A stretch of DNA of 59,805 nt from an uncultured Eggerthellaceae bacterium (GTDB taxonomy: Bacteria > Actinomycetota > Coriobacteriia > Coriobacteriales > Eggerthellaceae): the NCBI GenBank assembly GCA_947564425.1, contig CANOBU010000002.1, positions 1 to 59,805 on the forward strand, given 5' to 3'. Shown here in pieces: positions 3,759 to 42,298 of this stretch. Every line of letters begins with the position of its first letter. Within the stretch, counting starts at the first letter, position 1. Under the pieces are notes generated by a model that was not told the DNA's origin, did not search any database, and saw only the letters and a program-made list of their open reading frames with translations. The position numbers and the translations under genes were made by a program.

Positions 3759-4093
3759 CGGATACCCACAGTACAGCAGCAAAAGAAACGGCATCCCTTC
3801 CCCGGAATCCGCGCCTATAGGATGCAAAGGCGGCCGGCGAACCGATTGCCAGCCCTCCTTATTGGCAATCCGGCAAACGATACCGGACGAGCTGCCTAAT
3901 GCGGGGCTTCTTCCTTACTGCAGCACCAGAAACCCCATATTCGGTACATGGAGGAAAGAGAACCTGCAGCGATACGAACCGGAACGTTGAAAGAGGATGC
4001 CGGAATGAAACAAGCGAGAGCACTAGAGAAAATCTAAATTGCGAATAGCATGAATCGAATTATCGGAAAAAGAGGAGGCTTGGCGGGAAATGA

Positions 4094-4209
4094 GGTGTTT
4101 TGTGTATTTCGGCAGGCGTCATCGACTCCTTGCATTTTGCAACCTGGGGGAATGCCAATCGCTATCCAGCAAACCCAGCGCCAGAGCAAATCGAAATACA
4201 TAAAACACC
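4094..4209. repeat. 116-bp inverted-repeat element
   Basis: Arms of 18 bp, GGTGTTTTGTGTATTTCG at 4094-4111 and its reverse complement with one mismatch at 4192-4209, enclose about 80 bp. The element sits in the AT-richer part of a gene-free region (3759-4266) between the PIN remnant and iorB. No ORF of note lies inside. It may be a small non-autonomous element or a structured RNA. Confidence 0.7.
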
Positions 4210-4266
4210 CCTTTTCATGCCCAAATGCGCAAGTCGACGAACCAGCAGAATCAGCCAGAACCGCCA

Positions 4267-4367
4267 GGCGCCCTGCAGTGCGTGCCACGGGGCCGCCGGG
4301 GAGGGACAGCGCGCCTGATTGTGCGGCTGTTCCCCCGGCGGCCCCGCGGTGCGTGCTGCAGGGCGCC
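4267..4367 (-). terminator. Long GC-rich hairpin touching the iorB stop codon
   Basis: A 35-bp left arm (4267-4301) and right arm (4333-4367) both read GGCGCCCTGCAG at the outside and CGGGGCCGCCGGGG at the inside, with a block of mismatches between and a 31-nt loop. The outer end overlaps the iorB stop codon (TAG, 4369-4367). There is no clear U-tract, so termination of the iorAB transcript is likely but not certain; mRNA 3'-end protection is an alternative. Confidence 0.6.
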
Positions 4368-4960
4368 TAGCCCAGGGTCAGGTCGATGGCTTGCAGGTTC
4401 ATGTCGATGTAGGCCGGCTTCACGCATACCTCCACGGCGCCGTACAGGTCATCCAGGGTGATGGGCAGGAAGTCCACCGCAATGGCGCTGGCCAGCAGCA
4501 CGGTGTTCAGCACGCGGCTGTTGCCCACGCGCTTCAGTATGGCGGCATCGGGCACGATGACCAGCCGCTCCGGCGCATCGGCGAAGGCATCGGCCAAGGC
4601 GGCAATCACCTGGGCGCCCCGATAGGGGTTCTGCCCCAGGGCGGAACTCACCGACGGGATGCCCGTGGTGGCGCTGACCAGCATGCCGTGGGGCGCCAGA
4701 TACGGCAGCATGCGGGCCCCCTCGGCCGGCTCGAAGGCTATGATCATGTCGGCGCTTCCCTTGGGGATCAGCGGCGAGAACACCTCTTCGCCCCGGTCGC
4801 CCATGCGCACATGCGACACGACCGAGCCGCCGCGCTGGGCCATGCCGATGGTCTCGGCAGTGCGCACGTGCCAGCCCTTGTCTTGGGCCGCCTGGGCCAG
4901 GATCTTCGAGGCAAGCACCGTGCCCTGGCCGCCCACGCCGGTGAGCATCACGTTAATCAT
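4367..4960 (-). CDS. iorB: Indolepyruvate ferredoxin oxidoreductase, beta subunit
   Basis: A 197-residue gamma-type 2-oxoacid:ferredoxin oxidoreductase domain, starting MINVMLTGVGGQG, followed by GMAQRGGSVVSHVR and ending AYIDMNLQAIDLTLG. With IorA it oxidatively decarboxylates aryl pyruvates (from Trp, Phe, Tyr transamination) to aryl-acyl-CoA, reducing ferredoxin, in the cytoplasm. The start is the ATG at 4960, overlapping the iorA stop by 8 bp, a normal arrangement for translational coupling; longer frames only read through the iorA tail in another frame. Length fits the family (about 190-200). Confidence 0.93.
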   Translation of the reverse strand: MINVMLTGVGGQGTVLASKILAQAAQDKGWHVRTAETIGMAQRGGSVVSHVRMGDRGEEVFSPLIPKGSADMIIAFEPAEGARMLPYLAPHGMLVSATTGIPSVSSALGQNPYRGAQVIAALADAFADAPERLVIVPDAAILKRVGNSRVLNTVLLASAIAVDFLPITLDDLYGAVEVCVKPAYIDMNLQAIDLTLG

Positions 4961-7364
4961 TGCGCCCCCCTTCCCCATCGGTGGCATCGAAGGCGCTGAA
5001 CAGGGTCGGCGGCCCATCGTCATCCCCGTCGTAGATCCAGGCCTGCTGCTCTTCCGCGGCCAGGGCCTGCTGCTGCTCTTCAGCCCGCTCCCCGACTTCC
5101 TCCAGGGTGCCGCCGGGCTCCAGCGTTTCCTCCAGCACTTCCTCGGCATCCTCTGCGGCAACCTCGCCCACGGCCACGGCTTCCTCCGAAGCCGGCGCCG
5201 CCGAGGCGTAGGCCTGCATGCGGGCGGCGTCGTCCTCCAGGGCCTCGCGAGACACATGGGCGCCGGCGCGGGCCTTGCTCTCGGCCCGGGCATCCACCAC
5301 GGTCTCGGCCAGGCGGCCGGGCTCCCGCTGGGCCGCCAGCTCCTGGTCGGCCAGGGCCTCGTCCACCGTTTGGCTGGCCGCCGTCACGAACATCGGCGCC
5401 CCGCGGTACACCGCCGAGTCCATATGGATAGCATGGAAGGGGCACACCTGGGTGCACAGGCCGCAGCCGGTGCACAGGGCCTTATCGATGGTGGCCTGGC
5501 CGCGGTCGCGGCTGCGCGGCCCGGTCAGGTTGGGGTTGAAGCTGATGGCCGGACAGCCGATGGCCGTGATGCAGCGCTTGCAGCCCGTGCATATCTCGTT
5601 GTTGATGATAACCGGCTCCTTGGGCTTCACCAGCTGGATGCAGGCGCCCTCGAAGATCACCGCCGAGGGCCCTTCGAAATCCAGGGCCTTGCCCACCGCC
5701 GCCACCGAGGCGTCGCGGTCGAAGGCGTTGGTGCGCTCTATCAGGGTGAAGCCGTTGGCCCGCAGGCAGGCCTCTATGCTGAGGGGCTTGTTGTCGGCCC
5801 CCATCAGGGTATGGCCCGTGCCCGGATGGGGCTGGTCGCCGGTCATGGCGGTGGTGGCGTTATCCAGCACCATCACCGTGATATCGTGGCCGTTATAGGC
5901 CGCGTTGGAAAGCCCTGTCTCGCCGCTGGCGAAGAACGTTGAGTCGCCCACATAGGCGATGGCCTTCTTCTCGGGATTGGCCACTGCGATGCCCTGGGCC
6001 ATGGTGATGCCGCCGCCCATGCACAGGCAGGTATCCAGCGCATCCAGCGGGTGGGCATTGCCCAGCGTATAGCATCCGATATCGCCGCACAGCACCGCCT
6101 GCCGGCCGCCCAGGGCCTGCTTGACCGCATAGAAAGCGCCCCGGTGGGGGCAACCGGCGCACAGCACCGGCGGCCGGTCGGGAAGGTCGGTCTCGGCCCG
6201 GGCGCTCAAATGGATGGACCGGGCGCCGTAATCGGAGTTGCCGCGGAACCGGTAGAGGGAGAGCCGGCCGGTCAAGCCCAGGAATCGCTCGATCCGCGCC
6301 AGGATGTCATCCACATCGTTCTCGCCGCGGTCGCGGGCGGCCCCGGTTTCCTTCCCGTGGATATTGAAGGCCCCGTGCATGCGGCCGCAGAATGCCGCCA
6401 GCTGGTCCTCCAGCACGCTATCGAGCTCTTCCAGCACCAGCACATCGGCCAGCCCCGTGGTAAAGGCGTCGATGGCCCGCTCGGGGAACGGATAGGGCGT
6501 ACCCACCTGCATGAAGCGGTAAGCCGGGACCCCGATGTTGGCCTGGGCGGCCCGTTCGTTTATCATGCGCAGAGCCTCGCGCACGTAGGCCGCCGTGATA
6601 CCGCCGGCCAAGATGCCGAAGGTAGGTTGCCCGGTGAAGCTCTCCCCTGCCTCCTCCATGGCATTGAAGGCGGAGAAGGGCAGTTCGCTGGAGAACGTCT
6701 CGGCGATCAGCGGCAGGCGCTCGTTGATCTCGCCGTGGGCCTCGTAGGCCCGCCGCGGGAAGATGACCCAGCGGGACGGATCGTATTGGAAGCCGCCATC
6801 CAGGGGCGGCAGCGCGTGGGTTTCCTCTTGCACGTCGAAGAACGCCGAAGCGTGGTCGATGCGGGTGGTGGGCCGCACGATGACCGGCGTCTCGTAGCGC
6901 TCGGACAGGTCGAAGGCCGCCTTCACCATCTCGTAGGCCTGCTCCGGCGTGGAGGGATCCAGCACCGGCACCTTGGCGAAGGAGGCGAACCGCCGGGTGT
7001 CCTGCTCGGTTTGGGAGGATATGGGGCCCGGATCGTCGGCAACCACCAGCACCAGGCCGCCGCGCACGCCCACGTAGTTCAAGCTCATCAGAGCGTCGCT
7101 GGCTACGTTCAAGCCCATCTGCTTGCAGGTGAACAGCCCCCGCACGCCAGCCAGGGAGGCGCCGAACAGCATCTCCAGCGCCACCTTCTCGTTGGTGGAC
7201 CACTCCACATGCACGCCATGGGCGGCACCCCGGGCGTACTGCCGCGCCACGGTTTCCACGATCTCCGAAGACGGGGTTCCCGGATAGCCCGCCACCACGG
7301 CAACGCCGGCCTCCAGCGCCCCGTGGGCTATGGCCTCGTTTCCCATAAGGAGTTTCTTCGTCAT
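4953..7364 (-). CDS. iorA: Indolepyruvate ferredoxin oxidoreductase, alpha subunit, with a long C-terminal tail
   Basis: An 803-residue protein. The N-terminal pyrimidine domain starts MTKKLLMGNEAIAHGALEAG with GYPGTPSSEI; the TPP-binding domain has CAGCPHRG (about 402-409), GDIGCYTLG and GDSTFFASG; two [4Fe-4S] motifs follow, CTGCKRCxxxxGCP at about 592-604 and CTGCGLCTQVCP at about 631-641. IorA normally ends near here (roughly 580-640 residues). This one carries about 150 further residues rich in Ala, Glu and Gln (AAEEQQ, EVLEETLE) with no recognisable domain. The start is the ATG at 7364 with GGGGA upstream; a GTG at 7403 would add 13 non-conserved residues. It is co-transcribed with iorB; a paaK homologue lies further downstream on the same strand. 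Confidence 0.93.
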   Translation of the reverse strand: MTKKLLMGNEAIAHGALEAGVAVVAGYPGTPSSEIVETVARQYARGAAHGVHVEWSTNEKVALEMLFGASLAGVRGLFTCKQMGLNVASDALMSLNYVGVRGGLVLVVADDPGPISSQTEQDTRRFASFAKVPVLDPSTPEQAYEMVKAAFDLSERYETPVIVRPTTRIDHASAFFDVQEETHALPPLDGGFQYDPSRWVIFPRRAYEAHGEINERLPLIAETFSSELPFSAFNAMEEAGESFTGQPTFGILAGGITAAYVREALRMINERAAQANIGVPAYRFMQVGTPYPFPERAIDAFTTGLADVLVLEELDSVLEDQLAAFCGRMHGAFNIHGKETGAARDRGENDVDDILARIERFLGLTGRLSLYRFRGNSDYGARSIHLSARAETDLPDRPPVLCAGCPHRGAFYAVKQALGGRQAVLCGDIGCYTLGNAHPLDALDTCLCMGGGITMAQGIAVANPEKKAIAYVGDSTFFASGETGLSNAAYNGHDITVMVLDNATTAMTGDQPHPGTGHTLMGADNKPLSIEACLRANGFTLIERTNAFDRDASVAAVGKALDFEGPSAVIFEGACIQLVKPKEPVIINNEICTGCKRCITAIGCPAISFNPNLTGPRSRDRGQATIDKALCTGCGLCTQVCPFHAIHMDSAVYRGAPMFVTAASQTVDEALADQELAAQREPGRLAETVVDARAESKARAGAHVSREALEDDAARMQAYASAAPASEEAVAVGEVAAEDAEEVLEETLEPGGTLEEVGERAEEQQQALAAEEQQAWIYDGDDDGPPTLFSAFDATDGEGGRND

Positions 7365-7480
7365 AGGTCCCCGCTCTATCCCGTAAGCATCAGGCTGTTT
7401 CACAGCCTTTCATTGTAGCGCACTGCGGGGGCTTTGCCGGTTTCCCAGCGGAATCGCCATGGGCGTACGAAGGTGACAAG

Positions 7481-7547
7481 ATGACAGGGGTCGTTTCATT
7501 TGTCATACCCGATTCCCGGGCATGACAAATGAAACGACCCCTGTCAT
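7481..7547. repeat. REP-like element, inverted pair (ATGACAGGGGTCGTTTC type)
   Basis: A 26-bp sequence at 7481-7506 is repeated as a perfect reverse complement at 7522-7547, separated by 15 bp. Each half has short palindromic ends, ATGACA and TGTCAT. The core RTGACAGGGG(T/A)CGTT is shared with the elements at 48724 and 52747, so all appear to be one REP-like family of the kind associated with IS200-like (RAYT) transposases. No such transposase is in the window. The element lies between iorA and the foldase gene and may fold into a hairpin at their transcript ends. Confidence 0.85.
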
Positions 7548-7655
7548 CCGATGGAACGACTCCTGCCATCCGTCGCTCTGTCACTTCGGCGGGGCGACGG
7601 GCTGCAAGGCCCGCCGCCCCATCCGTCTCAGTCTATACCCGGTGCCCCCGGATAT

Positions 7656-7681
7656 ATGACAAATGAAACGACCTCTGTCAT
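7656..7681. repeat. REP-like element, single copy
   Basis: ATGACAAATGAAACGACC...TGTCAT, the same 26-bp sequence as the right half at 7522-7547 with one mismatch. It ends 4 bp from the stop codon of the foldase lipoprotein gene. Confidence 0.85.
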
Positions 7682-7684
7682 GCC

Positions 7685-8875
7685 CTAGGCAGCCGTATCC
7701 TCTTCGACTTCCTCGTCGAGGAGCTCGTCATCCAGGGGCTCTTCATCAAGAAGGCTCTCATCATCGAGCAGCAGCTCGTCGTCTTCCATGAGCTCATCCA
7801 GATTCGGGTCGCCTTCCAGAAGCTCTTCATCATCGGCAGAGACGGCATACTCGGCATACTTGTCCATATCCACGAAGTAATCGAGGCCCGCGGGCACCTC
7901 GGCATACTCAATGGTGATGCCCTTCTTGTAATTCTCCAGCCACTCATCATAGGCGCTGTAGCCTTCGGACATGGCCACCGATTCGCGCATCTCCTCAAGC
8001 AGCGCCGCCGGGAAGACCTCCACAGAGGTCACCTCGCCTTCAGGGGCAGTGAATTCCTCGGTGCACAAGATGATCTGCGGGCCCTCATCGGTATCCACCA
8101 CGTTGCTCATCTGGCCCGGGGCCAAGGCAGCCAGGGCGTCCTGGTAATCATCGGAGAATCCGATCAGCACGTCCCAGCCCATATCGCCGCCGTTGGCAGA
8201 GCTCTCCCCATCGACGGAGTACTCCTTGGCGGCGTCGGCGAAGGATATCTCGTTGGCCATGATGCGCTGCAGCACCTCCTGGGCCAGCTCGCCATCGCCC
8301 TCGTCGAACACGATGGCCGAGGAGCGCTTGGCATCATCGTAGTAGTCGCTGTTCTCGGTGTAGTACTCGATCACCTCTGCATCGCTCACGTCCCCGGCGG
8401 GGGCGGCCACCTTCTGCTGCAATGCATCCTGCAGCATGGAGGCCTCCACCTCGGAGCGGTACTGGTCCTCGGTCATGCCCGTCTCCGCCAGCATGTCGTT
8501 CCACTCCTCGTCGGAGTCGTACATGGACTTCATGCTTTCCAGGTACTCGTCCACCTCGGATTGGTCCACGGACACGCCCTCGCTGGCGGCGGCTTGGCGT
8601 ACCACCTCGTCATCGACCAGCTGCTCCAGGGTTTCCTCGCGGAAGCTCTCGGGCGTATAGCCGGACTCCGCCAACCACTGGCCCCAGGAATCGTCATCAG
8701 TCAGCTCCATGCTGGTGCGGAAGGCCTGGACATCGGCTGTAACGGTGCTCTCGGGGATAACGGTGCCGTTCACCGTGGCCGCCGCCTGGGTGCTTCCATT
8801 GCCCGAGCAGCCCGCCAGGGCCAGAACGCCGATGACAGCCGTTGCGATTAACGTTGTGAGTTTGCGCTTGATCAA
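7685..8875 (-). CDS. Parvulin-type peptidyl-prolyl isomerase lipoprotein (PrsA/SurA-like)
   Basis: A 396-residue lipoprotein. Residues 1-23 are a lipoprotein signal with the lipobox LALAGC; a SurA-N-like segment with ATVNGTVIPESTV follows, and the PpiC domain is at about 165-280 (SSAIVFDEGDGELAQEVLQR, FADAAKEYS, GGDMGW). Such proteins fold secreted proteins outside the membrane. The start is the TTG at 8875, with AAGGAAAGGAA just upstream; no ATG gives a proper signal peptide. The last 50 residues are almost only Asp, Glu and Leu (DDELLLDDESLLDEEP), an unusual acidic tail. It follows purE by 28 bp and is probably co-transcribed. It ends beside a REP-like element. Confidence 0.88.
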   Translation of the reverse strand: MIKRKLTTLIATAVIGVLALAGCSGNGSTQAAATVNGTVIPESTVTADVQAFRTSMELTDDDSWGQWLAESGYTPESFREETLEQLVDDEVVRQAAASEGVSVDQSEVDEYLESMKSMYDSDEEWNDMLAETGMTEDQYRSEVEASMLQDALQQKVAAPAGDVSDAEVIEYYTENSDYYDDAKRSSAIVFDEGDGELAQEVLQRIMANEISFADAAKEYSVDGESSANGGDMGWDVLIGFSDDYQDALAALAPGQMSNVVDTDEGPQIILCTEEFTAPEGEVTSVEVFPAALLEEMRESVAMSEGYSAYDEWLENYKKGITIEYAEVPAGLDYFVDMDKYAEYAVSADDEELLEGDPNLDELMEDDELLLDDESLLDEEPLDDELLDEEVEEDTAA

Positions 8876-9625: not shown

Positions 9626-9762
9626 GGGAGTTGCATCGACTTCGGGGCAGTTATGCATGATTCCAGAATGCAAAACCATGCATAACTGCCTCGAAATGAC
9701 GGCAAAACCCTCCGGATCAGGAAATGGGCATACATAAGTGCCCCGAAGTCGATGCAACTCCC
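9626..9762. repeat. 137-bp nested inverted-repeat element
   Basis: Outer arms of about 33 bp (9626-9658 and 9730-9762, two mismatches) begin GGGAGTTGCATCGACTTC and are flanked by T-rich (left) and A-rich (right) runs. The inner GCAGTTATGCATG box recurs inverted at about 9672-9687, so a box is present once forward and twice reversed. The architecture, and the TTTT-n2-GGGAGTT...TTATG pattern, resemble the elements around 25.6-25.9 and 27.5-27.8 kb. Confidence 0.8.
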
Positions 9763-23820: not shown

Positions 23821-25248
23821 ATGACCAGCTTGATGAAACGGGCTTCAGTGGCGCTCCTGGCCATCGTCGTGGCCTTCTCGCTCTGCCTACCCGCCTTGTC
23901 CTTCGCCGACTCCAGCGGGCAATCCGCCGCCGCAGACTCCTCTTCGGCCGCCGCTGCTTCGAGCGGTTCGGCTGCATCGGGCAGCAGCGCTGCGGCAACG
24001 GACGGCAACGGCGATGGATCCGATGCCGCTGCGACCACTCCTGCCGACGATTGCATCGTCACCTTGGAGTACTACGAGAACGTTATCTCCGAGGAGCCGG
24101 GCATCCCGCCCGACGAGAACGGCCGCTACCTCCTGGGCACCCGGCAGCTCACCGGCCTGCAGGAGGGCACCCAACTGGACACGTGGGATTACGTGCTGGA
24201 CCTCACCGGCTACTTCTTCTTCGATGCATGGCCGGCGAAGCTCACCGTCAGCACCGACCCCGCCGACAATGTGATCCAGCTGTTCTACTTCCGCTACAGC
24301 AACTACTCCTATACGGTCAACTACTACCTGATGACCGGTGCCGATCTCGCAGCTGACAGCTGGAGCGAGGCCCTGGCCCCCGACAAGGTGGAATTCCACA
24401 AGCTGGGAAGCGAAGTGGTCGAGAACCAGCCCTACGGCGAACTGGTAGAAGGCGATGCCTACGAGTACAAACTGGATGGCGCCTATGTGGTGGACACCTA
24501 CCCGCCCGACATCCGCGTAGGTGTAACGCCGGACAACAATACTTTGAATGTATTGTATGTCCCGCAAACCACCACGCTTCCAGATGACATCGAAATCCCC
24601 GATGAGGTGATCGATCCCGGCACCGTGGATACCCCCAATGCGAAGCCGCCTGCGATGCCCAACGACGAGACCTTCGACAAGGATGGCATAACGGCCGTGC
24701 TGCCCAACAAGAAACCTGTTTCCAACGAAGTGGGCACGGACAGCGGCTCCAGCGCCGCGAAGCCCGCCGGTACCGCAACGCCGTCCGGCAGCGATACCTC
24801 CGATCAAGGGGATGCTACCGTGGAGGTGCCCGGCGTGGGCGCTATGACCGAGGAGCAGATCGATGAGCTGTTCCGAGACTTCGTGGGCGCCGAATCCGAT
24901 GAGGGCGTCATGGAGATCACCGACGAGATGCTGGCGAATCCCGTGGATCCGGCTGTGGCAAAGCGCATAGCCGACGCCTACATCACCGGTTACGACAACG
25001 GCACCGCTGCGGCCGAGGCCCGATGCGCCCCCAGCATCACCGACCACATCATCTGCATCATCATAATGATCATCCTGGCTTTGCTGGCGCTTATCGGGTT
25101 CATCCTGTACGGCCGCGAACATGGGAAGCTGAAGCGCCTGCAGGAAGCCCAGGACCAGGCCGCCGCCGGGGCCGGCGCCACCGCGGCAGCCGCCCGGGCC
25201 GAAGCGCCGAGCGAGCAGCCCGCTCCGCCCATCGATCCCTTGGAGTAG
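23821..25248 (+). CDS. Surface protein with two MucBP-like repeats and a C-terminal membrane helix
   Basis: A 475-residue predicted surface protein. A Sec signal (LLAIVVAFSLCLPALSFADS) is followed by a Ser/Ala-rich low-complexity stalk (about 30-75), then two related ~90-residue units beginning VTLEYYENVISEEPG and YTVNYYLMTGADLAADSW, each ending with a DNxxxLFY / NTLNVLYV strand, a pattern like MucBP/Listeria-Bacteroides-type repeats. A Pro/Thr/Asp-rich linker follows, and a single helix (IICIIIMIILALLALIGFIL) near residue 430 with a basic, then Ala-rich cytoplasmic tail anchors it. No LPXTG. The ATG at 23821 has AGAAAGG upstream; earlier in-frame codons lack these signals. The last 54 bp of the gene recur at 28001-28057. 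Confidence 0.8.
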   Translation: MTSLMKRASVALLAIVVAFSLCLPALSFADSSGQSAAADSSSAAAASSGSAASGSSAAATDGNGDGSDAAATTPADDCIVTLEYYENVISEEPGIPPDENGRYLLGTRQLTGLQEGTQLDTWDYVLDLTGYFFFDAWPAKLTVSTDPADNVIQLFYFRYSNYSYTVNYYLMTGADLAADSWSEALAPDKVEFHKLGSEVVENQPYGELVEGDAYEYKLDGAYVVDTYPPDIRVGVTPDNNTLNVLYVPQTTTLPDDIEIPDEVIDPGTVDTPNAKPPAMPNDETFDKDGITAVLPNKKPVSNEVGTDSGSSAAKPAGTATPSGSDTSDQGDATVEVPGVGAMTEEQIDELFRDFVGAESDEGVMEITDEMLANPVDPAVAKRIADAYITGYDNGTAAAEARCAPSITDHIICIIIMIILALLALIGFILYGREHGKLKRLQEAQDQAAAGAGATAAAARAEAPSEQPAPPIDPLE

Positions 25249-25251
25249 CAA
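25195..25251. repeat. 57-bp direct repeat, copy 1 (3' end of the surface protein gene)
   Basis: CGGGCCGAAGCGCCGAGCGA... to GGAGTAGCAA, including the stop codon, is repeated at 28001-28057 with two mismatches (55/57). The two copies enclose 2.75 kb carrying a nuclease gene and nested inverted repeats. Confidence 0.95.
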
Positions 25252-25280
25252 CGCGCAAACCATTGGGATAGCATGGGCGT

Positions 25281-25312: not shown

Positions 25313-25603
25313 AGTCGCATATCAGGGAACGCGCCCCGATCAAGGGGCAATGGCGGCCGGGGTCGAGAGAGGGGCGGCCCCCGGCCGTCATTGCCCCGCT
25401 CATCTGGCCCACTGCACCTCCCTACCGCTTGCAACCCCGACCGCAGCTCCTCCCTCCCCCTACCGCACCTCTTCCCTTGCACGCTCGCCGAAGCCCCGCA
25501 CCGTCCCCGCGTCCTGTGGGTTTTATCCCCGATGCGCTTCCCCGTCGCTCGCACCCGGCCGCACCCCATCCTTCCGCCCCGGCCGCACTCTATAGGTTCG
25601 GCG

Positions 25604-25852
25604 GTCCATTATGTGTTTTATCTACTTCTTGCTCCCAAACGATCCGGTTTTAAGGAGTTCAGACGCCCATTATGTGCTTGCCGCAACCCCCTTCGCCTCC
25701 ATGGCTGAAACCCGAGCCGTTAACCAGGGGATTTAGATAACTGTCCCGGAAACACCCATGGAAGCCATGCTGCAAAACACATAATGGGCATCTGAACTCC
25801 TGAAAACACCCTTCCCAGCCTGCCGTCTCGCATCTCGAAACGCATAGTGGCG
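25604..25852. repeat. Inverted-repeat block with four CCCATTATGYGTTT boxes (left of the nuclease gene)
   Basis: Boxes are forward at 25605-25619 and 25665-25679, and inverted at 25775-25789 and 25836-25850. The inner pair is embedded in longer arms (TTTT-n2-GGAGTTCAGA-n-GCCCATTATGTG, about 33 bp, few mismatches). Arm-to-arm spacing is alike on both sides (about 60 bp between boxes). A block of the same design lies on the other side of the nuclease gene at 27551-27815. 25313-25603 holds no gene that I can support. Confidence 0.85.
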
Positions 25853-26215
25853 GCCAAACCTCCAGATCGCCGAGCCCTCAAACAGCAGGATCCCGAGATG
25901 CGATCCGCCGCCGATTGCAAGCCATGCGCTCGAAACCCAGGGCCGGATCCGCAGCCGGCCATCAGGCTGGGTCCCAGCAAACCGATCCGGCGTCTCGCGC
26001 CAGGGTTCCTTCGGCCACCCTATCGGCTCCCTTCCTCGCTCTGCAGCTGCAGCACCCGATTGCTCCCGCACCGGTTGCTGCAGCTGCAACCCTTCCTGCG
26101 GGCGATCATGCGAGAATCCTGCCATTTCCAAAGAAACCTCTGTCAACTGCGCAAGAATCCTATGGCGGCTTATGCAGGGAATCCGTTGGAGCCATGCTGC
26201 ACAACGGAGGTCCGA

Positions 26216-27400
26216 ATGGTGAAACGCCCCCTGTATGCTTCATCCATGGATCTTTTCATCGGCAACATATCCGCTATGGCCTATTGGTGCAAAACTCCCG
26301 TGGGAATAGATAGATCGACGACGCGGACATCGCTGCACTACCTCAAAAACCCCATCACAACCCTGAAGGCTTTGAAAAAAGCGGCCATCGATGCAGATTC
26401 GCTGGGGACAGCTCCACTCCATATCTACGCAACACCATCCTCCCTACGCCGCCCGTCACAGCAGCTGATCTGCCATCTTGCCACCCAGCCTTTTCCGGTA
26501 AGCGCATTCCGCCGGCTCACGCGGCACGTCCTCATAGCCTCACCGGAATTGAGCTTCCTCGAGATGGCCGCCTCGCTGCCACTGCCGAAGCTCATCGAGT
26601 ACGGCTACCTCCTCTGCGGCACCTACTGCCTCGACCCCTCGACGACGTCGGGCAACAACCGGCCGCCGCTCACGACGGTAGCGAAATTGAAAAGCTTCCT
26701 TGAAGCCGCCGGAACTCGCCGAGGCTGCGCCCTTGCACGACGCGCCTTGGGACTGATTCAGGAAGGATCAGCGTCGCCCCGCGAGACGAAAACAGCCCTG
26801 CTGCTATGTCTTCCCATGAAAATGGGTGGTTACGGCCTACCGCGGGCCCAGTTGAATCGCACCATCGAATTCACCGACCGCGAACGGTTGCTATTCGGCA
26901 GAAACGCCACCGTACCGGATCTATACTGGCCCCAGCAGAAGGTCGCCCTCGAATACGACGGCGAAAAGCATCACTCGGAAAGCCGCGCCCTTTCGCACGA
27001 CCGCCAGAAGGAGAGTAATCTGGCCTATCGGGGCATTACCGTCTTACGTCTTGACAAGCACCAGATGAGCAACGCCTATCAGGTTTACGTGGTGGCCCGC
27101 AAGGTTGCGCGGTCTTTAGGTCGTCGGCTAGCCGAACCGACGGCGAACCAATGGGAAAACCATCGCAGGCTATTCGCCATCATCATGAGAACCCGTACCC
27201 TCCCTAACCCGATGCGCCGACGCCCGCCCCCTGGTACCGGGATTCACCGCGACAAGCCCCGCCACCCATCACCGCCGCGCCGCACAACCGAGCATTCGGT
27301 GCGTTCCAAACCCTTCGATGCCGGTCGATACCGCACAAGACACTCCAATGCCAGCCATCTCGGCAAACATGAGCTCTGCTGCCGGACGCCACCAGGATGA
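26216..27400 (+). CDS. DUF559/Vsr-like endonuclease-domain protein
   Basis: A 394-residue protein. The N-terminal part (MDLFIGNISAMAYWCKTP..., LASPELSFLEMA-like ASPELSFLEMAASL) resembles the AbiEi-type/'DUF559' proteins of actinobacteria; the C-terminal part has a PD-(D/E)XK-type core, VPDLYWPQQKVALEYDG followed by EKHHSESRALSHDRQ and ITVLRLDK, with the D-x(n)-E-x-D spacing of Vsr-like nucleases. I choose the ATG at 26216 because CGGAGG stands 5 bp before it; the frame is open from 25847 but the leading 120 codons cover repeat DNA. The last ~60 residues (from about GTGIHRD) look like read-through into non-coding sequence. The gene lies alone between two blocks of CCCATTATGYGTTT boxes and within a 57-bp direct repeat. 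The biological role is unknown. Confidence 0.7.
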   Translation: MVKRPLYASSMDLFIGNISAMAYWCKTPVGIDRSTTRTSLHYLKNPITTLKALKKAAIDADSLGTAPLHIYATPSSLRRPSQQLICHLATQPFPVSAFRRLTRHVLIASPELSFLEMAASLPLPKLIEYGYLLCGTYCLDPSTTSGNNRPPLTTVAKLKSFLEAAGTRRGCALARRALGLIQEGSASPRETKTALLLCLPMKMGGYGLPRAQLNRTIEFTDRERLLFGRNATVPDLYWPQQKVALEYDGEKHHSESRALSHDRQKESNLAYRGITVLRLDKHQMSNAYQVYVVARKVARSLGRRLAEPTANQWENHRRLFAIIMRTRTLPNPMRRRPPPGTGIHRDKPRHPSPPRRTTEHSVRSKPFDAGRYRTRHSNASHLGKHELCCRTPPG

Positions 27401-27550
27401 ACGATCCCGCCGCCCCGTATCGGACAGCGAGCCATTCCAGAAATGGTTGCGGGACGCTCAGCTGCGACCCGCATTCAACCTCGCGCCTATTACTGGGTTG
27501 CCAGGTTGTCAGGCTTCCGCCATCAAAAGAGCACTGTTTCCCGGCTGATG

Positions 27551-27815
27551 GGTTGATTGGCCCATTATGCGTTTCCCATCGAAATCTGCGGAAATCGAGG
27601 ATGCTTTCTGAGGTTCGGCTGCCCATTATGCGTTTTTGGAGCGCATTGATTCAAACGCGGAGGAAAGGGCGCCCGCTTCCCCAGGTGAGGCTTCCGACCG
27701 ACGGCCAGAAAGCGCCAACGGAAAACGCGAAACACATAATGGGCAGCCGAACTCCCGAAATGCCCTCTCTAGAACGCAAGGGAGCACTCGAAACGCATAA
27801 TGGGCGCCCTAACAA
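27551..27815. repeat. Inverted-repeat block with four CCCATTATGYGTTT boxes (right of the nuclease gene)
   Basis: Boxes are forward at 27561-27575 and 27621-27637, and inverted at 27729-27744 and 27789-27805. The inner pair lies in GTTCGGCTGCCCATTATG arms. The outer pair shares GGTTG-n-CCCATTATGCGTTTC. The same two-box half-element thus occurs twice here and twice in the left block. 27401-27550 has no gene. Confidence 0.85.
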
Positions 27816-27978: not shown

Positions 27979-28000
27979 GGATGCAGTCGCGGAACTCCGA

Positions 28001-28057
28001 CGGGCCGAAGCGCCGAGCGAGCAGCCCGCCCCGCCCATCGATTCCTTGGAGTAGCAA
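28001..28057. repeat. 57-bp direct repeat, copy 2
   Basis: Identical to 25195-25251 except two positions. It even keeps the frame, ending APPIDSLE and a TAG stop, so it is either the tail of a lost paralogue of the surface gene or an attachment-like duplication. Confidence 0.95.
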
Positions 28058-28119
28058 GACAGCCGGAAAATCGGAACGGCGGCATCCGCAGCTCCGCCCC
28101 ATCAGGTCCTGAGAAACGG

Positions 28120-41551: not shown

Positions 41552-42298
41552 ACCTCTCTCCTCTCTCTCCTCTGCTCACTTTTACCCTTGGATTGCACTC
41601 GGGGAGCAAGTTGGACGAAATGGGGATCGGCACAACCTGCAGCCCCGAGCAACCCCAACCTACCGCGTTCCAGGCACCCTGTCCTCGGCATTACTTGCTT
41701 ATTCCCGGGCTCATGAGTACTTAGATTCTCTAAGGAGGAAGCATTGGGAGAAAAGTATTAGGAGCTATAGAATTGCCTGTTCAAACCTTCAATAGGAACG
41801 AGAATAACAAACGGATGCACCGATAGGGCAGGGTCGGAGGTGTAAAGGGCCGCAGCGCCATCTTTCGCGCGACGCTTCCAAGCCTCACTCCGGATTATCA
41901 GGCGGTATCGCCGGCCTTTACCCCCCCAACTTCCCGAAATGGGCTCCAGCGTGGTCACAATCCCGACTTTTTAGAGCCGAACCGGCCCGTTCGCCCGCGC
42001 GCCTGCAGGCGCCCTCGGCAAAAGCCCAGGTGGGAGTTCGCCAGCAGCGCGCCAGCGAGGCGGCCGGTGCGAAATGGCATCGTTTTCGGGCCCCGAAGCT
42101 CTAAAAAGTCGGGTTTGTGACCACCGAAGGCGGTAAAACGAGCAGTAACCGATGCCGGCAAGGAGAATACGCCGGGCCGGAAGTTGGGGGTGGGGGTTAT
42201 CCAGCCATCGGCGCCGTGGCGTGAAATGCCATGAGCGAAGCGAGAGATGGCGCTGCCTGCGTTGCCGCCTCCCGCACGGCCCCTCGACTGCCTGGAAG
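41552..42298. other. Long intergenic region upstream of the molybdoenzyme operon
   Basis: Some 750 bp. It begins with the promoter side of the molybdoenzyme operon (41552-41950; a purine-rich AGAGGAG tract by the start, no certain promoter) and contains one 170-bp inverted-repeat element. No gene is visible. Confidence 0.6.
41953..42122. mobile_element. 170-bp element with 25-bp terminal inverted repeats (MITE-like)
   Basis: GGTCACAATCCCGACTTTTT...AGAGC (41953-41977) matches the reverse complement of 42098-42122 at 24 of 25 bases; weaker pairing continues for about 11 further bases. There is no ORF of use inside and no obvious target-site duplication. Size and ends fit a miniature inverted-repeat element, but a structured RNA is also possible. 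Confidence 0.6.

What the first reader, a model, noticed from the sequence alone, without database searches (positions are those of the whole stretch)
25604..27815. Nuclease gene bracketed by two matching inverted-repeat blocks of a four-box design
Eight copies of a CCCATTATGYGTTT box flank the DUF559-like nuclease gene (26216-27400): four in 25604-25852 and four in 27551-27815. In each block the order is forward, forward, inverted, inverted, with similar spacing (60 and ~63 bp between like boxes). The half-element (box, ~40 bp, GGAGTTC-type arm, box) is therefore present four times. The arms differ in detail (GGAGTTCAGACGCCC versus GTTCGGCTGCCC), so they were not just copied recently. This looks like an undescribed repeat family associated with, and perhaps acted on by, the enclosed nuclease.
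Basis: partly seen in the sequence, partly recalled or inferred. Interest (0 to 1): 0.75.

Follow-up and report, generated by a model that had tools for sequence, protein, structure and literature searches.

The report
Nucleases with private scattered palindromes
In relatives of the gut bacterium Eggerthella, genes for predicted DNA-cutting enzymes are often flanked by their own private type of large mirror-image DNA block, copies of which in several genomes lie scattered between other genes, and each enzyme likely recognises its own blocks and may maintain or spread them.

Summary
Eight boxes form two "++--" blocks around the DUF559-like gene (8 found, 0.42 expected). Around 80 such genes in named genomes, long-loop inverted repeats are 13 times denser within 500 bp than beyond 1.5 kb. 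Arm sequences differ from gene to gene, but loops share a core near CCCAGGTCA (39 of 70 loops; 7.5% of controls; supported on 56 further loci). Arms recur at dispersed places: in the window's own genome, arms of a second nuclease gene lie at 17 other places, one inside the window at 41952-42123. In 400 kb of Slackia equolifaciens, 12 of 17 dispersed palindromes (five arm types) have three or more arm matches at nuclease genes elsewhere. Same-strand boxes are spaced near whole DNA turns. The protein model matches homing endonuclease I-Bth0305I and Vsr, and weakly AbiEi. I read it as paired nuclease-repeat families working like RAYT and REPINs, with unrelated parts. Binding, cutting and spreading are inferred. 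The window's own arm type is not dispersed, the strict four-box form is rare, and no clean empty site was found.

The parts
25594..25862 (.). Block 1 (269 bp), four boxes: 25605-25618 (+), 25666-25679 (+), 25775-25788 (-), 25838-25851 (-); inner arms 25647-25679 / 25775-25807
   Evidence: folding z -6.7 as RNA
25720..25733 (-). Core motif in the loop of block 1, AATCCCCTGGTTAA on the minus strand, 14.3 bits; the final matrix was built from other loci, but this site was among the starting seeds
26216..27400 (+). DUF559/Vsr-like predicted nuclease, 394 aa: AbiEi-like N-terminal half, nuclease domain about 187-303, last ~65 residues beyond the family's usual end and mostly of low confidence in the model; D235, E246, H253, D262 invariant in the alignment of 23 members
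27550..27815 (.). Block 2 (266 bp), four boxes: 27561-27574 (+), 27622-27635 (+), 27730-27743 (-), 27791-27804 (-); inner arms 27605-27635 / 27730-27760
   Evidence: folding z -4.7 as DNA
27676..27689 (+). Core motif in the loop of block 2, CTTCCCCAGGTGAG, 9.0 bits (also among the starting seeds of the matrix)
41952..42123 (.). Dispersed block of a sister family between two ORFs: arms near TGGTCACTATCGCAACTTTTTAGAG, the arm type that flanks the second nuclease gene of this genome (G000:C43:9898-10644)
42021..42034 (+). Core motif in the loop of that block, AAAGCCCAGGTGGG, 13.7 bits

Best explanation
Gene 26216-27400 encodes a predicted Vsr-fold nuclease of a family many of whose members are flanked by large inverted-repeat blocks with gene-specific arms and a common CCCAGGTCA-like core; the enzyme likely binds its own arms as double-stranded DNA, would cut at or near the core, and so likely maintains and spreads its private set of blocks, much as RAYT transposases are thought to do for REPINs. 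SHOWN: the enrichment of inverted repeats at these genes, the core in most loops, arms that differ between nuclease genes of one genome, dispersed copies whose arms match particular nuclease genes, arms about 90% alike between copies while the rest of the loop is near shuffle level, and box spacings near whole helical turns. INFERRED: that the protein binds the arms, that it cuts, that the core is the cut site, that breaks are repaired by copying from another block (arm homogenisation and spread), and that the gene bracketed by two blocks can move as a unit.
Against: The window's own arm type has no dispersed copy. In S. equolifaciens the N-type nuclease locus is 97-100% identical over most of 3.5 kb to that of G102, yet N-type arms were found only at that locus, against 16 other places in G102. 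Only 50 of 80 loci have a strict palindrome within 1 kb; a similar rule gives 92 of 155 loci, some of them duplicates. The strict four-box form is not denser near the gene than far from it. Over 4063 protein pairs arm similarity does not follow protein identity (Spearman -0.006); arms are shared in 6 of 11 distinct pairs above 70% identity and in 118 of 4025 pairs below 55%. The core is weak (<9 bits) in 5 of the 10 dispersed G102 blocks measured, of 16 places. No target-site duplication or clean empty site was found. I have no expression, binding or cutting data.
Confidence: 0.55

Rival explanations
1. The protein is a DNA-binding regulator that keeps a nuclease fold: each paralogue binds its own dispersed operators (the blocks), bridges inverted boxes on one face of the helix and controls neighbouring genes and itself, as AbiEi autoregulates through inverted repeats.
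Against: Catalytic-type residues D235, E246, H253 and D262 are invariant in the 23 aligned members; blocks lie on either side of the gene and with the core in either orientation; ~200-bp symmetric palindromes with a core are not needed for an operator; arms differ even between fairly close proteins.
Confidence: 0.22
2. The blocks are ordinary MITE-like leftovers of an insertion sequence whose transposase is not this protein; the nuclease gene merely sits in repeat-rich stretches.
For: Palindromes dispersed at about 10-20 places per genome are what MITEs look like; no partner nuclease was found for arm types C, D, G and I.
Against: Enrichment is tied to this gene family over 80 loci from about 59 record prefixes, nuclease paralogues of one genome have different arm types, and most dispersed palindromes tested match nuclease loci; loops are not alike between copies, as young MITEs would be; no obvious target duplications in the 7 copies looked at.
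Confidence: 0.1
3. The blocks act as RNA: long hairpin transcripts with a core loop that the protein binds or processes.
For: Strong folding of the window blocks and a conserved loop motif.
Against: No strand bias of the core relative to the gene (12+/13- downstream, 8+/11- upstream); same-strand spacing fits duplex DNA turns; no Rfam family reached its gathering score.
Confidence: 0.08

Closest known systems
REPINs and RAYT transposases (REPtrons)
   Same: Inverted pairs of conserved ends around a spacer, in extragenic places, near a cognate gene; several parallel families in one genome; a fixed motif plus variable palindrome (REPIN paper PMC3116915: abstract read; GTAG/CGTC paper PMC3733652: passages).
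   Different: The enzyme is a Vsr/DUF559-fold protein, not a tyrosine transposase (no such Pfam hit); blocks are about 160-280 bp, boxes can be repeated at helical spacing, and the shared motif is a CCCAGGTCA-like core inside the loop rather than a GTAG tag at the end.
EDxHD homing endonucleases (I-Bth0305I)
   Different: In the window no intron, intein or interrupted coding target was noticed, and dozens of non-coding cognate sites exist in some genomes.
AbiEi antitoxins and AbiEi-DUF559 proteins
Vsr mismatch endonuclease
   Different: No sequence match to Vsr chains at E up to 10 in the PDB sequence search; the CCWGG link is a lead only.

Membership tests
REPIN/RAYT | Dispersed inverted doublets of a conserved end around a variable spacer | tested here: met
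   (not for the window's own arm type)
REPIN/RAYT | Cognate gene flanked by the same ends | tested here: met
REPIN/RAYT | Gene product is a Y1/HUH tyrosine transposase | tested here: not met
   Pfam scans give DUF559, MTES_1575, DUF2726 and a few single weak hits, no transposase family; fold is Vsr-like
REPIN/RAYT | GTAG (or CGTC) tag at the palindrome foot | not tested
   no systematic tag search; the shared motif found is CCCAGGTCA-like
EDxHD homing endonuclease | I-Bth0305I-like catalytic fold with conserved acidic/His residues | tested here: met
EDxHD homing endonuclease | Cuts an allele lacking the element so that the gene is copied into it | not testable with these tools
   needs biochemistry or strain pairs
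AbiE type IV toxin-antitoxin | AbiEi antitoxin with an AbiEii nucleotidyltransferase partner | tested here: inconclusive
MITE of an insertion sequence | Target-site duplications at the ends | tested here: inconclusive
   flanks of 7 copies in the own genome show no obvious duplication by eye, ends not sharply defined

The most novel reading that the evidence does not exclude
Genomes of this bacterial order host several mutually private nuclease-palindrome pairs (nine or ten nuclease genes in each of two Slackia genomes): many of these homing-type nucleases own roughly 7 to 17 non-coding sites that share their arms and a universal core, and by cutting and copying at the core each rewrites its sites in concert, so that old sites are converted in place to new arm types. 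At three orthologous places two Slackia species hold a block at the same spot with different but related arms.
Probability: 0.4. Interest if true: 0.92.

Novelty: categorically new. Interest (0 to 1): 0.8.

Why it matters
It would be a second, unrelated solution to what REPINs and RAYTs do: long-lived intergenic repeats that answer to a single gene, built here around a homing-endonuclease fold. Because one genome holds several parallel pairs with different arms and one core, the specificity question (which part of the protein reads which arm) becomes directly testable, and the fast turnover of arms gives a natural series of recognition switches. It would also give a role to a multi-copy class of DUF559-like proteins without assigned function in gut Coriobacteriia.

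Full report
OBSERVATION. The eight boxes are real and at the stated places (8 matches, 0.42 expected, 0 of 100 shuffles reach 8). The two blocks are 25594-25862 and 27550-27815. Box and 'arm' are one longer repeat unit, 31-33 nt and 87-91% complementary between the two inner arms of each block. The blocks fold better than 200 shuffles (block 1 as RNA; block 2 as DNA). In the window's genome the box is confined to this locus at up to one mismatch.

FAMILY-WIDE BLOCKS. In 80 loci of named records (the best 80 of 101; about 59 record prefixes) long-loop inverted repeats (18-nt arms, 16 or more matched, loop 15-260) number 58 in 77 kb within 500 bp of the gene and 30 in 530 kb beyond 1.5 kb. With a stricter rule 70 blocks, some overlapping, lie within 1 kb in 50 of 80 loci. 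Several loci carry the same arms on both sides with equal or nearly equal distance between boxes (L048, L072, L084, L091, L102, L122), others with unequal distance (L058, L088, L094). The strict four-box form was found near the gene in 7 of 80 loci; its density near (7 in 285 kb) and far (12 in 529 kb) is the same, against 10 in 2.44 Mb of shuffles. So the window's four-box form is a special case of the inverted pair.

THE CORE. Loops share a motif, consensus aAacCCCAGGTCAg: 39 of 70 loops score 10 bits or more against 7.5% of 345 length-matched far segments, 53 of 70 against 36% at 5 bits. That matrix was fitted to the same loops, started from seeds that included the window, L021 and L043 sites. 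I repeated the test on 56 loci whose gene does not overlap the fitted set (60 taken from the listed matches, 4 dropped): core plus inverted arms 0.287 per kb within 500 bp (16 in 55.8 kb) and 0.029 beyond 1 kb (12 in 410 kb); 17 of 56 loci have one within 1 kb; the two loci that repeat L021 and L043 gave no hit. The core's strand shows no bias relative to the gene in 44 blocks. Both window blocks have it, 40 nt into the inner loop.

DISPERSAL. Arms beside the nuclease gene of Adlercreutzia sp. ZJ141 (one match, as G058) recur at 9 further places, 6 of them with matches on both strands. In the Atopobiaceae genome of L122 there are 3 further full-length places besides the two gene flanks, plus 11 partial matches at E up to 1. 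In the window's own genome the second nuclease gene (C43:9898-10644) has a different arm, TGGTCACTATCGCAACTTTTTAGAG, present at 17 other places (E up to 1) and at one more 2 kb from the gene; 7 blocks that I could extract are 163-172 bp long; one is in the window at 41952-42123, between two ORFs, with a core. Four of the 17 lie within about 200 bp of a contig start. The one-contig genome G017 has the L131 arm at 7 further places. The window's own arm is not dispersed.

PAIRING. In 400 kb of S. equolifaciens 18 palindromes, about eleven arm types by my grouping, were found without reference to any nuclease gene. Of 17 outside the local nuclease locus, 14 have a 13-of-16 match in eight nuclease loci elsewhere in the genome (gene plus about 1.5 kb each side), against a mean of 22% in 20 control sets of equal length; 12 of 17 have three or more matches, 9 of these with a single locus; controls reach three now and then. 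The 12 are not independent: five from type A, four from B, one each from D2, E and F. Box searches assign A to L345, B to L352, E to L343, F to L356 and H to L353, and D2 to L348 by eye. Types C, D, G and I had no convincing partner in this genome; one nuclease locus is cut by a contig end. 14 of 18 palindromes are clear of ORFs of 200 aa or more.

TURNOVER. Uncultured Slackia G102 has the N-type arm at 16 places away from its nuclease. S. equolifaciens, whose N-type nuclease segment is 97-100% identical in most 60-bp steps over 3.5 kb while the rest of the two loci runs from 70 to 98%, has it only at the nuclease. The segment spans both blocks, a hydrolase-like ORF (named by eye) and the nuclease, with a dip to 83-93% over the nuclease's N-terminal part. 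Thirteen of the 16 G102 block loci were compared with the 400 kb. In three both flanks align well (L285, L291, L292; L301 is the same site as L291), and in all three S. equolifaciens has C-type boxes between the same flanks; the G102 copy in L285 has only one clear box. A fourth (L293) has distant matches on both sides (69-71%) and no listed palindrome between them; two have a match on one side only; seven have none. C and N arms agree at 21 of 31 positions by my count from these outputs. Across all loci there is no overall correlation of arms with protein identity; arms are shared in 6 of 11 distinct pairs above 70% identity. Between copies within a genome the arms are 0.89-0.92 alike while loops without the core are near shuffle level (0.52 against 0.49-0.50); the core scores above 12 bits in 7 of 7 own-genome copies measured but below 9 bits in 5 of 10 dispersed G102 copies measured.

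SPACING. Same-strand box spacings of 17 loci with two or more inverted copies fall near 30, 40-41, 50-51, 61-62 and 72 (exceptions 56 and 64), close to multiples of 10.2 bp. Over periods 10.0-10.8 the best R is 0.78 (at 10.6, with an offset), 0 of 20,000 random sets; with all 34 rows, junk included, R is 0.55, 0 of 5,000. Some of the 17 are orthologous pairs. This points to a protein reading duplex DNA from one face.

READING. The parts fit a cognate nuclease and its private palindromes. I commit to a REPIN-RAYT-like logic carried by a homing-endonuclease fold: bind own arms, cut near the core, repair by copying, so that arms stay alike and sites are rewritten in concert. Binding, cutting and copying are inferred. 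The strongest counter-facts are the undispersed window arm and the undispersed N type in S. equolifaciens. A regulator with dispersed operators is the main rival. I mark it categorically new because the enzyme is unrelated to RAYTs and the papers found in the searches made do not describe it, although the logic is similar.

Noticed in passing
window 25190-25254 and 27997-28060: A 64-bp direct repeat (89%) of the 3' end of the upstream ORF brackets the whole block-gene-block element.
   Followed up: partly
window 41952-42123: Dispersed block of the sister nuclease family between two ORFs, with core.
   Followed up: yes
window 9626-9762: Another large palindrome (arms GGGAGTTGCATCGACTTCGGGGCA) without a core by the matrix; possibly a third block family.
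   Followed up: no
window 7480-7700: Long hairpin with ATGACAAATGAAACGACC-type arms and a third copy about 110 bp on.
   Followed up: no
window 27205-27400: The nuclease runs ~65 residues beyond the usual family end, mostly low confidence in the model; possibly a read-through tail.
   Followed up: no
L077 about 4070-7560: 3.5-kb segment of 97-100% identity (with a dip) between two Slackia species, including a hydrolase-like ORF between the blocks: possible cargo.
   Followed up: partly
L077 5870-6230: The N-terminal part of this nuclease is the one diverged stretch (83-93%) inside that segment, perhaps a specificity region.
   Followed up: no
L048 5130-5400 and 6550-6830: Boxes are bracketed by TTCCAA/TTGGAA, an extra small inverted repeat.
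   Followed up: no
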